A stretch of DNA of 64,000 nucleotides from Myxococcaceae bacterium. Lineage in GTDB: Bacteria; Myxococcota; Myxococcia; Myxococcales; Myxococcaceae. This document shows positions 42,546 to 47,200 of the stretch, in pieces. The DNA lies in contig SECN01000053.1 in assembly GCA_004173515.1 (NCBI GenBank), positions 1 through 64,000 of the forward strand. The letters are read 5' to 3'. The position numbers and the translations under genes were made by a program. Position 1 is the first letter of the stretch, and each line of letters begins with the position of its first letter. Under the pieces are notes generated by a model. The model did no database searches. It saw nothing but the letters and a program-made list of their open reading frames with translations, and had not been told where the DNA came from.

Positions 42546-44244
42546 GGGACCCTTCCTTCTCCGCGCGCGGCGGGGGCAGGTAGCCAGTGGAGACGAAATA
42601 GTCGAGGTAGAGGCGCAGGAAGGCGGGGTCCACCACGCGGCACGCGATGCCGGAACCCTGGAGCGCCGCGTGTAGGTTCGTGGTGTCGAAGTGCGGCTCG
42701 CTGCCCGCGTACCCCACGTCCTCGGACGGTGTGTCCTCGGTGAAGAGCGGATGGAAGCGGGTGAGCGCGTTGTCGTCGCCGCGCTCCACCGCCGCGCTCA
42801 GCTCGCGGTACCACGTGGCGTACGGCACGCGCCGCAGCGGGTAGCCGCACACGTCCAGCATCTCCACGAGTTCGCTCCAGCGCACCGTGCGTGCGCCGGG
42901 CAGGTGGAACGCGGTGCCGTGGCGCTGGCCGCTCAGCGCGACGTGCGCGACGACGCGGGCGCAGAAGTCCACCGGCACCATCTCCAGCAGCACGTTGAAG
43001 TTCAGCGCCGCGCCCAACTGGATGCAGCCCTTCATCGTCTCGTTGAGGAAGGTGTCGGTGGAGCAGGCGCCCGTGTCCTGCGCGCCGGTGATGAGGCCCG
43101 GTCGGTAGATGCACACCGGCAGGCCCCGGTGCCCCGCCAGCGAGACGAGCTTGTCGCCCACCCACTTGGTCTGCCGGTAGCCGCCCATGACGCCGGTGGG
43201 GTCGGTGAGCTCCGCTTCCGCGAAGTGCTGCGGGCCCGGGTGGCCGGGGAACACCGCGAGCGAGGAGACGAAGTGCACCGGTTTCACGCGCTCGCGACAC
43301 GCCAGCCGCAGCACCTCCAGGGTGCCCAGCACGTTGACGGCCTTCAGGCGCGGGTAGGGCAGCGCGTAGCTGGAGTGCGCGCCGTTGTGGATGATGACCT
43401 CCACCTCCCGGGTCAGCGTCGTGTACTCCGCGCGCGTGAGGCCGAAGTAGGGTCGGCCCAGGTCCCCCGCCACGCCGATGAGGCGGGCCGCGTCGGCGTC
43501 ACGCCACAGGCCGTAGCCGGTGAGGTTCTGGCGCACGCGCTCCAACGCCGCGTCCGCGTCCTTCGCCCGCGCGAGCACGTAGAGGCGCGCGTCGGAGCGA
43601 TCCAACAGCTCCCGCACCAGGTACGCGCCGGTGTAGCCGGTGCCTCCGGTGAGCAGCACCGTGCGGTACGGCGCGGCTGTGGGCGGCAGGGTGTCCGGGG
43701 TGATGCGGATGTCGTCCGGGAGGGACGCCTCGGCCCACAGGTCCTCGCTGGCCAGACTGCGGGGACTGGCGCCGTGCGCGGACGGGCCGCCCGTCTTCGC
43801 GCCGATCATCCGCACGAGCTCGGAGACGGTGGGACGCTCGAAGAAGCGGCGCATGGCGGGCGCGACCCCGAAGGCCTCCTTCACGCGCGCGGCCATCTGC
43901 GCCGCCGCCACGGAGTCACCGCCCAGGTCGAAGAAGCTGTCCTCCACGCCGACGCGGCCCACACCCAGCACCTCCTGCCAGAGCTGCGCGAGCCGCAGCT
44001 CCTCCGGCGTGGCGGGCGCCACGTGCGCGGTGGTGGAGGGTTCGGAGGGGTCGCCCAGCGGCAGGCGGCTTCGGTCCACCTTGCCGTTGGGCAGCTTGGG
44101 CAGCGTGTCCAGGATGACGAAGCGGGTGGGGACCATCACCTCGGGGAGGTGCTCGCGGGCGAAGGCATCCAGCGCGGCGCGCAGCCCGGACACGGAGGTG
44201 GACAAGAGCGGCGCGTTCGCCGCACGGGAGGTGGCGTCACTCAT
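42532..44244 (-). CDS. NRPS2: adenylation lid, carrier and thioester reductase
   Basis: A 570-residue protein. It starts with the C-terminal lid of an adenylation domain only: A9 (LPEVMVP, about 32-38) and A10 (NGKVDRS, about 50-56) with the catalytic lysine. A peptidyl carrier follows (LGGDSVAAA, about 105-113), then a reductase domain (about 190-560) with GGTGYTG (197-204) and the YRQTK catalytic pair (about 352). It should supply the missing lid for module 2 of NRPS1, carry the dipeptide and release it with NAD(P)H as an aldehyde. AAGGAG stands eight bases before the ATG at 44244, and the ATG overlaps the NRPS1 stop (44241-44244), so it is a separately initiated protein. Confidence 0.93.
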   Translation of the reverse strand: MSDATSRAANAPLLSTSVSGLRAALDAFAREHLPEVMVPTRFVILDTLPKLPNGKVDRSRLPLGDPSEPSTTAHVAPATPEELRLAQLWQEVLGVGRVGVEDSFFDLGGDSVAAAQMAARVKEAFGVAPAMRRFFERPTVSELVRMIGAKTGGPSAHGASPRSLASEDLWAEASLPDDIRITPDTLPPTAAPYRTVLLTGGTGYTGAYLVRELLDRSDARLYVLARAKDADAALERVRQNLTGYGLWRDADAARLIGVAGDLGRPYFGLTRAEYTTLTREVEVIIHNGAHSSYALPYPRLKAVNVLGTLEVLRLACRERVKPVHFVSSLAVFPGHPGPQHFAEAELTDPTGVMGGYRQTKWVGDKLVSLAGHRGLPVCIYRPGLITGAQDTGACSTDTFLNETMKGCIQLGAALNFNVLLEMVPVDFCARVVAHVALSGQRHGTAFHLPGARTVRWSELVEMLDVCGYPLRRVPYATWYRELSAAVERGDDNALTRFHPLFTEDTPSEDVGYAGSEPHFDTTNLHAALQGSGIACRVVDPAFLRLYLDYFVSTGYLPPPRAEKEGSHARV

Positions 44245-47200
44245 CGCGTCTGCTCCTTCGCTTCGAAGACGGCGTCGAACGTGCCCGCGCGTCCGGACGC
44301 GGGCGGGCACAGCCGCACCGCGCGGCCATGACGTGCGGCCAGGGCCACCACGTCCTCCGGATCCACGGCGGTGTCCTCGTCCGCGTCCCAGAGCTTGCGC
44401 TCCACGTCCCAGGCCGTCTGTCCGGGCGCGGCCTCGCGCAGCAGTCGCACCAGCGCCAGCGGACGGACGAGCCGCCGGTTGGGAATGTCGGTGACCGCGA
44501 ACACTCCGGCGCCGCGCGGTGCCTCCAGCAGCGTCTCCAGCGCCGTGTCCCCGCTCACCGTGTCCCAGTCGACCGTGTCCGTCACCGGCGCCTGGGGAGC
44601 ACCCCCGAGCGTCACGTCGTAGCGGAAGCAGGTGAGCTCGTTTACCGCGTGGCCGCGCTTGAGTTCCAGGCGCACCGGCTGTTGGACACGTGCGGCATGT
44701 TCGCGGAAGAAGGACGGCGCCAGGCACAGCTCGCGCTCGGCGGTCACCTGTCGGGCCACCGCCGCGGCCAGGTCTCGCGCGGGCATCAGCGCGGGCGCCT
44801 TGTGCAACTGCACGGACGCGTGGAAGGCCTCCAGCAGCTCCAGGTCCCGGACGTCTCCGACGAACACCGCGCCGGTGGTGCCGGCCACGCGCGTGGCTTC
44901 GTCCAGCACGCGCGTCAGGTAGTCCGTGCCCGGGAAGTATTGGATGACGGAGTTGATGACCACCGTGTGGCCCGCATCTCCGGGCAGCGTGGACAGGTGG
45001 CCCGCATCGCCGTGCACGAGCGTGACGTGCGCGGGCAGCGGCCCGCTCCCCAGCGACGCGGCGGCGGTGCGCAGGGCGGCGGGTGATACGTCCAGGCCCA
45101 GGTAGCGCTCGACGTGGGGGGCCAGGTGGCGCAGCACCAGTCCCACGCCGACGCCCACGTCCACCAGGGTGCGTGGACGCAGCGCGGTGATGCGCTCCAC
45201 GGTGTGGGAGAGCCACTCGCGCATCTGGGCCGGGTCGATGGGCTCTCCGGTGTAGCTGCTGAGCCAGCCGGAGAAGTCGCGGTCCAGGTCGGTGCCGCGC
45301 GCGCCCGTCTCCGGGTCGGTGTAGGCGCCTTCCCAGACCTCGCCCCAGCGCCGCACGTGCGCGTCCTCCGCGCCCCGGTCCATCAGGCCCTGGCCCGGCG
45401 CGACGAAGGCGACCAGCTCCGCGGATCCGTTGGCGCGAGCTACCGCGACGACGGCCACGGAGGCCACCTGCGGGTGGCGCGACAGCACGCCCTCCACCTC
45501 GTCGGGTTCGATGCGGTGCCCGCGGATCTTCACCTGCCGATCCACGCGCCCCAGGAACTCCAGCACGCCGTCCGCACGCCAGCGCGCGCGGTCCCCGGTG
45601 CGGTACATGCGTCCCGGCCGCGTGGGGTGGGGCACGAAGCGCTCGCCCGTCAGCTCCGGGCGGTTGAGGTAGCCCAGGCTGACGCCCTCGCCGCCAATCC
45701 ACAGCTCGCCCGCGACGCCGATGGGCATGGGTTCGAGCGCGGCATCCAGCACCAGGACGTCCGTGTTCGCGATGGGCCGGCCAATGGGGATGACGCCCTG
45801 GCGCGGGTCCTGCTCCACGTCCACCTCATGCACGGTGGACCACACCGTCGTCTCGGTGGGGCCGTACATGTTGAAGAGCTTCACGCCGGGCAGTCGCGCG
45901 CGCACGCGCTCCACCAGCCCCGCCGGAAGAATCTCCCCTCCGACGAGCACCGCGCGAGCGCCACGCAGCGACTCCAACGCGGCGGGCTCCGCGGCCACGG
46001 CGGCCAGGAAGGACGGGGTGCTCTGGGTGAGCGTCACGCCGTGGCGGCGGCACAGCTCCGCGAAGGCATAGCGGCCTTCCGCGTCGTCCGAGCCGGGCGC
46101 GCGCACCAGGTTGTTCACCAGTCCCTCGCTGGCGATGACCACCCGCGCGCCGTGGGTGAGCGGCCAGAGCAGCTCCAGCACGGAGATGTCGAAGGACATG
46201 CTCGTGAGCGCGAGCACGACGTCGTCGGCCCCGCAGCCGATGCGCGTGTCCATGCCCAGGAAGAAGTTCACCACGTTGTGGTGGCGCACCTCCGTGCCCT
46301 TGGGCCGGCCCGTGGAGCCGGAGGTGTAGAGCACATAGGCCGCGTCCTGGCCGTCCGCGCCCGACTTCCACGGCGTCGCGGGCCTCGCGCCTGCCTCCGC
46401 CGCGTCCACGTGCACCACGACGCGAGCAGGCAGCCCGGTGGGATCTTCGGGCCACGTGACGAGCGCGTCCAGTTGCGCGTCGGAGGCGATGAACTCCAGG
46501 CGGTTCTGGGGGTAGCCCGGATCGAGCGGCACGTACGCGGCGCCCGCCTTCATCACCGCGACGAGCGCGATGACGAGCTCGGGTCCACGGGGCAGGCTCA
46601 CGCCCACCCGGCCGCCGCGACGCACGCCCTTCGCATGCAGCAGGGACGCCAGTTGCCCGGCGCGCGCGTCCAGCTCCGAGTACCGCACCGTGACGTCGCG
46701 GTGGACGAGCGCCACCCGGTCCCCCGCCGTGCGGGCCTGATGCTCGATGAGCGCGTGGACGGTGAGCTCGCGGTCGTACGGCATCGCGGTGGCGTTCCAG
46801 CGCGCCACGCGTTCACGCTCCGCCGCATCCACGAGCGTCACGTCGGAGAAGCGCGCGTGCGGGGTGGCGGCGACGGCCTCCAGCGCGCGGCGGTAGTAGC
46901 CGGTGAGCCGCTCGCAGAAGTCGGCGTCCAGCGCGGCCATGTCGCAGTCCAGCCACAGGCGCAGGCCACCCTGCACCGGGTCGTAGAGGAAGTTCACCGC
47001 GAGCGGGTAGTTCGTCTCCGCCACGCCCACGCCGTCCAGGATGAGCGCTCCCGTGGGGCCGGTGACCTTCCACTGCCGCCGGAAGTCCATGAAGTTGACG
47101 TAGCTGTCCAGGGGCAGCGCGTTGCCCAGGTCCCGCTGCACCTGCATGAAGGGATAGCGGCGGTGCGGCGTGGCCTCGCGCTCGTGGGCGAAGATGGCGT

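What the first reader, a model, noticed from the sequence alone, without database searches (positions are those of the whole stretch)
44030..45540. Adenylation domain divided between two proteins, with a methyltransferase at the break
Module 2 has its adenylation core through motif A8 and then a methyltransferase on NRPS1, which stops. A9, A10 with the catalytic lysine, the carrier and the reductase are on NRPS2. The second gene has its own AAGGAG eight bases before an ATG that overlaps the first stop as ATGA. The two proteins must therefore rebuild one active site between them. From memory, a split adenylation domain is described for the corallorazine (crz) cluster of Corallococcus coralloides, which I believe this is or closely resembles.
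Basis: partly seen in the sequence, partly recalled or inferred. Interest (0 to 1): 0.92.

Follow-up and report, generated by a model that had tools for sequence, protein, structure and literature searches.

The report
Split adenylation domain of corallorazine synthetase
One enzyme domain of an antibiotic-making assembly line is cut across two overlapping genes so that two proteins must rebuild it. This was already published for the corallorazine cluster, but the comparison here shows the same cut, with the same gene overlap, in related clusters of very different bacteria, and a separately evolved cut of the same kind in Deinococcus.

Summary
NRPS1 (51431..44241, -, C-A-T-C-A-nMT) carries module 2's adenylation domain through A8 plus an N-methyltransferase. 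NRPS2 (44244..42532, -) begins with A9 and A10 (catalytic Lys55), then carrier and reductase. They overlap as ATGA, with AAGGAG 8 nt upstream. The full crz1-8 gene set surrounds them. A split A2 domain, glycine-active only when both proteins are mixed, was published for Corallococcus coralloides B035 (PMC11342130, 2024), so the core finding is known and this locus is an ortholog.

New here: (1) the break is ancestral to the crz family. All 26 readable junctions (three phyla) keep an NTGA start/stop overlap, 23/26 with a Shine-Dalgarno-like site (background 14%), although the flanking tails vary freely. (2) Compared with solved 5WMM and three intact A-nMT-A domains of the genus, the break falls in the methyltransferase-exit linker, dividing the lid subdomain between the two proteins. 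AlphaFold gives each half-lid alone as poorly formed. (3) A second, separately evolved split occurs in two Deinococcus plasmids: Cy-A-Ox | half-lid-T-R, also ATGA (AU p=0.006 against one clade with crz). Herpetosiphon has a third candidate, with a TauD gene between the halves.

The parts
44241..51431 (-). NRPS1 (crz1 ortholog): C1-A1-T1-C2(modAA-like)-A2(to A8 + two lid strands)-nMT; stops TGA 44243-44241
   Evidence: ORF and translation; Pfam; start may be one of the later in-frame codons
45558..46766 (-). A2 core subdomain (A1-A7), residues 1556-1958 of NRPS1; Gly-type pocket by eye
   Evidence: AlphaFold core pLDDT mostly 70-95
45378..45554 (-). first half of the A2 lid: A8 hairpin, helix and two strands, on NRPS1
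   Evidence: alignment; low confidence (block pLDDT about 41-54) when folded without NRPS2
44259..45368 (-). embedded N-methyltransferase domain, ends at last strand TFDAVF; short tail then stop
   Evidence: Pfam; 5WMM alignment; fold search
44253..44258 (-). Shine-Dalgarno AAGGAG, 8 nt before NRPS2 ATG
   Evidence: SD-like site in 23 of 26 family members vs 13.6% background
44241..44244 (-). ATGA overlap of NRPS2 start and NRPS1 stop
   Evidence: NTGA in 26 of 26 readable junctions of the family
42532..44244 (-). NRPS2 (crz2 ortholog): half-lid (A9, A10) - T - thioester reductase
44056..44217 (-). second half of the A2 lid on NRPS2 (residues 10-63): NxPL motif, helix, A9 strand, A10 with catalytic Lys55 (codon 44082-44080)
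   Evidence: intact same-genus controls
40728..42545 (-). crz3 ortholog, fatty acyl-AMP ligase
   Evidence: 63% to B. glumae protein; NCBIfam FAAL
39007..40731 (-). crz4 ortholog, acyl-CoA dehydrogenase
37271..39007 (-). crz5 ortholog, acyl-CoA dehydrogenase (start MTTPQVD, approximate)
36995..37255 (-). crz6 ortholog, acyl carrier protein
35697..36926 (-). crz7 ortholog, cytochrome P450 (start approximate)
35120..35689 (-). crz8 ortholog, NADPH-dependent FMN reductase

Best explanation
This is the corallorazine synthetase (crz1/crz2) of a Corallococcus species. The glycine-activating A2 domain is an A8-A9 interrupted (A-nMT-A) domain whose chain is cut in the linker leaving the methyltransferase. 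Ribosomes finish NRPS1 and restart on the overlapping ATG (own SD site), so the two proteins are made together. The lid is then rebuilt across the two chains: A8 hairpin, helix and two strands from NRPS1; helix, strand and the A10 lysine loop from NRPS2. The rebuilt lid closes on the core to make Gly-AMP, the carrier on NRPS2 is loaded, the nMT on NRPS1 methylates, C2 joins Gly to Ser-derived dehydroalanine, and the reductase on NRPS2 releases the dipeptide for cyclisation. Because no docking tails are conserved, the half-lid itself is probably the docking element that holds T-R to module 2. Shown elsewhere (ortholog): activity needs both proteins. Shown here: anatomy, place of the break, ancestry, and conservation of the overlap. 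Inferred: lid complementation geometry, docking role, coupling at the level of translation.
For: Published split and two-protein exchange assay in the ortholog. Domain anatomy. All eight crz genes present in order. 26/26 NTGA junctions across three phyla; crz split loci form one clade (100*). 5WMM aligns end to end across the break and is the top fold match of NRPS1 A2-MT. Three intact A-nMT-A domains of the genus show the break lies in a variable linker just before a conserved ANDPL-type motif, which NRPS2 keeps. Half-lids fold poorly alone: block pLDDT 41-54 in NRPS1, no lid strand in NRPS2. NRPS1 tails (about 5 to over 45 aa) and NRPS2 N-tails (6-21 aa) are unconserved.
Against: Low half-lid pLDDT may partly reflect a shallow alignment (18 rows), and no intact-domain control was folded. 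Translational coupling is inferred from sequence only. No conserved interface residues unique to the split form were identified.
Confidence: 0.93

Rival explanations
1. Sequencing or assembly frameshift: the real gene is one continuous A-nMT-A-T-R protein.
For: Draft genome of 888 contigs; such errors do occur in this protein class (L119, and L064 inside the T domain).
Against: Same split at the same place in 25 other clusters with different surrounding DNA, an in-place SD-like site in most and a start codon, and in the published, cloned and expressed B035 genes.
Confidence: 0.01
2. Programmed ribosomal frameshifting makes a fused NRPS1-NRPS2 as the working form.
For: The fixed -1 frame relation in 26/26 junctions would fit a -1 shift.
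Against: No shared slippery sequence is visible at the junctions printed (not tested with a frameshift predictor); start codons ATG, GTG and TTG with SD-like sites are kept; the separate proteins of the ortholog are active together. A 4-nt overlap alone gives the same frame relation.
Confidence: 0.04
3. The split is a neutral frozen accident with no role beyond being tolerated; the overlap is kept only because a 4-nt overlap is hard to leave. (This is about why the split persists, and is compatible with the best explanation of how it works.)
For: Single origin in crz; tails drift freely; the paper suggests that linear shunt products may come from the split. One member (L081) has lost the 4-nt overlap but keeps the split.
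Against: No clean re-fusion in the sampled family; an unrelated lineage (Deinococcus) arrived at the same break and ATGA.
Confidence: 0.4

Closest known systems
crz (corallorazine) cluster of Corallococcus coralloides B035, Crz1/Crz2 (PMC11342130)
   Same: Same eight genes, same domain order, same split after nMT with A9/A10 on the second protein.
   Different: Probably a different strain; gene length slightly different. The main text of the paper does not report whether the split is conserved in the family, nor the invariant overlap.
Interrupted adenylation domain AMA4 with embedded methyltransferase (PDB 5WMM; TioS, Mori et al. 2018)
   Same: nMT embedded between A8 and A9; same MT and A folds.
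   Different: 5WMM is one chain; here the chain is cut in the linker that in 5WMM joins MT to the second half of the lid.
Thiazoline-oxidising Cy-A-Ox modules (EpoB type, from general knowledge)
   Same: The Deinococcus comparison locus has an oxidase embedded at A8-A9.
   Different: In Deinococcus sp. QL22 and KNUC1210 the chain is cut after the oxidase and the half-lid is on the next protein.

Membership tests
crz (corallorazine) gene cluster family | Co-directional crz1-crz8 gene set | tested here: met
   All eight found in order on the minus strand; 44-64% identity of crz3-crz8 to the B. glumae copy
crz (corallorazine) gene cluster family | Crz1 domain order C-A-T-C-A-nMT and Crz2 A9/A10-T-TD | tested here: met
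   Pfam and NCBIfam
crz (corallorazine) gene cluster family | C2 of the dehydrating CmodAA type with a K/R...H helix motif | tested here: met
   KSLLAAAH present in NRPS1 against the paper's [K/R]SVLLAAH (K and H at the same spacing); C2 53-59% to homologs; subtype tree not run
crz (corallorazine) gene cluster family | Gly activation only when both proteins are present; product corallorazine | not testable with these tools
   Shown for the ortholog in PMC11342130
Interrupted adenylation domains (A8-A9, backbone N-methyltransferase) | Methyltransferase inserted between A8 and A9 | tested here: met
Interrupted adenylation domains (A8-A9, backbone N-methyltransferase) | Both halves of the A domain on one polypeptide | tested here: not met
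   Chain ends after nMT; A9/A10 on NRPS2

The most novel reading that the evidence does not exclude
Cutting an interrupted A domain at the exit of the embedded tailoring domain is a recurrent, selectively kept architecture: it arose at least twice (nMT in crz, oxidase in Deinococcus, perhaps a third time in Herpetosiphon with a whole TauD gene between the halves). The trans-completed lid serves both as active-site part and as docking interface, held in balance by a start codon that overlaps the stop.
Probability: 0.5. Interest if true: 0.62.

Novelty: already known. Interest (0 to 1): 0.4.

Why it matters
The split itself is published, so its value lies in what the comparison adds. A natural cut in the A8-A9 linker that is old, kept in at least three phyla and separately repeated in Deinococcus marks a proven break and joining point for NRPS engineering. 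It also addresses the paper's open question about evolutionary origin: the crz break most likely happened once, before the sampled family spread, rather than by a recent erroneous recombination.

Tried and rejected
Plasmid-record rows had to be left out of structure jobs. L119 (Microseira) looked split but is a plain frameshift. L064 has a frameshift inside the T domain of NRPS2, with a normal ATGA junction. L076 (Streptacidiphilus) groups with L081 inside the split clade on A cores, lacks the MT and reads as fused, but the sequence has a frameshift right after and still shows ATGATG at the old junction, so it is not used as proof of re-fusion. L061 and L066 have related reductases but no half-lid. 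The phage collection had only distant NRPS matches. Evenly drawn samples of about 400 genomes each from the class of a Streptomyces and the phylum of a Pseudomonas gave no crz loci beyond the centre genomes; a Streptomyces family search failed.

Full report
Check of the observation. The two ORFs are as described. NRPS1 is 51431..44241 on the minus strand (2396 aa from the first ATG) and NRPS2 is 44244..42532 (570 aa); NRPS2's ATG overlaps NRPS1's TGA as ATGA, with AAGGAG eight bases upstream. Pfam gives C-A-T-C-A-methyltransferase on NRPS1, and carrier and reductase on NRPS2 with a weak AMP-binding_C half match at residues 21-55. A9 (LPEVMVP) and A10 (LPNGKVDR, Lys55) are therefore at the start of NRPS2. 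The lid subdomain is itself cut, with A8 and two strands staying on NRPS1.

What it is. All eight crz genes lie in order on the minus strand; crz3-crz8 were matched one by one to the annotated Burkholderia glumae plasmid copy (FAAL 63%, two acyl-CoA dehydrogenases 51-53%, ACP 49%, P450 64%, FMN reductase 44%). The split A2 domain of crz in Corallococcus coralloides B035 was published in 2024 (PMC11342130). There Crz1.2 alone had no glycine-dependent exchange, and mixing with Crz2 gave almost full turnover. [quoted passage not shown] The window is thus an ortholog of a known system. Four of 16 Corallococcus genomes searched carry it.

Is the split conserved? One genome-collection scan plus plasmid hits gave crz-like clusters in Corallococcus, a Polyangia MAG, Streptomyces, Kitasatospora, Nocardiopsis, Cellulomonas, Actinokineospora, Pseudomonas, Serratia and Burkholderia. 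In all 26 junctions counted (window included), the NRPS2 start codon begins one base before the NRPS1 TGA (ATGA, GTGA or TTGA). An SD-like tetramer sits upstream in 23 of 26, against 13.6% of random positions in the same 3' regions. The tail of NRPS1 after the last methyltransferase strand varies from about 5 to over 45 residues and the NRPS2 head from 6 to 21, without conserved sequence. So the overlap of stop and start has been kept while the protein ends drifted. The rows are related, so 26 is not 26 independent events. The one member without NTGA, L081, has ATGG, a longer overlap and still a split. In the same loci 198 other A10+T units have A8 upstream in frame.

Where the break falls. 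The solved single-chain interrupted domain 5WMM aligns across the break, and three intact A-nMT-A domains in the same genus (L139-L141) show a variable linker of about 20 residues after the last MT strand, followed by an ANDPL-type motif (ANDPL, ANRPL; AHEPY in the third), helix, A9 and A10. NRPS2 keeps the NxPL motif (invariant N10 and P12). The break is in this linker. AlphaFold of NRPS1 A2-MT gives a mostly confident core and MT but low confidence in the half-lid (blocks 41-54), and NRPS2 1-151 shows no lid strand. These fit a lid that needs both chains, with the caveat that no intact control was folded. 5WMM is the best fold match.

Origin. In a tree of the reductase region the split crz loci form one clade (100*) relative to the other split loci, with an uninterrupted module (L068) as nearest outgroup; a few rows without a half-lid or of uncertain frame (L061, L066, L076) also lie near its base. 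On A cores the crz group is held together with weaker support. Outside it, Deinococcus sp. QL22 encodes Cy-A(to A8)-oxidase on one protein and half-lid-T-reductase on the next, with ATGA. Deinococcus sp. KNUC1210 has the same break and ATGA, although that record has other frame problems. Holding crz and Deinococcus together as one clade is rejected (p-AU 0.006), so this break most likely evolved separately in that lineage. Herpetosiphon aurantiacus DSM 785 has an A domain that stops after the A8 strands, a complete TauD dioxygenase gene, then a half-lid-T-reductase protein; a second gene in the same cluster also begins with a half-lid. Whether those are functional is unknown.

Mechanism and limits. 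The best reading is translation-coupled production of two proteins that rebuild the lid in trans, with the half-lid likely acting as the docking piece. Activity in trans is shown for the ortholog; lid geometry, docking role and coupling are inferred. Whether the split is useful or merely tolerated stays open.

Verdict. The added value is the age, constancy and separate recurrence of the break.

Noticed in passing
L042 9908 (Deinococcus sp. QL22 plasmid) and L124 8687 (Deinococcus sp. KNUC1210 plasmid): A second kind of split A domain: Cy-A with embedded oxidase ends, half-lid-T-reductase starts on an ATGA overlap. By eye the QL22 pocket looks Cys-like.
   Followed up: partly
L107 3086-11530 (Herpetosiphon aurantiacus DSM 785): A domain cut after the A8 strands with a complete TauD dioxygenase gene between the two parts. 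Another NRPS gene about 13 kb away also begins with a half-lid, with no A core directly upstream.
   Followed up: partly
L048, L041 and L053 NRPS1: A luciferase-like monooxygenase (PF00296) is also inserted in A2 of Burkholderia glumae and Streptomyces sp. CB02980, not only in Pseudomonas; the paper names Serratia and Pseudomonas for this insert. These A domains carry two inserts and a chain break.
   Followed up: partly
L076 about 9983: Streptacidiphilus sp. 4-A2 crz relative without the methyltransferase, reading as fused, but with a frameshift just after and a leftover ATGATG at the old junction.
   Followed up: partly
L041: Complete crz operon on a mobilizable B. glumae plasmid between trfA/parB and an IS21 element, a possible route of spread.
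   Followed up: no
L061 and L066: Kutzneria and Williamsia have crz2-like reductases preceded only by a carrier domain, with no half-lid.
   Followed up: no
window 55778-56977 (+): A second cytochrome P450-like match (32% to the B. glumae crz7 protein) on the opposite strand, outside the crz operon.
   Followed up: no
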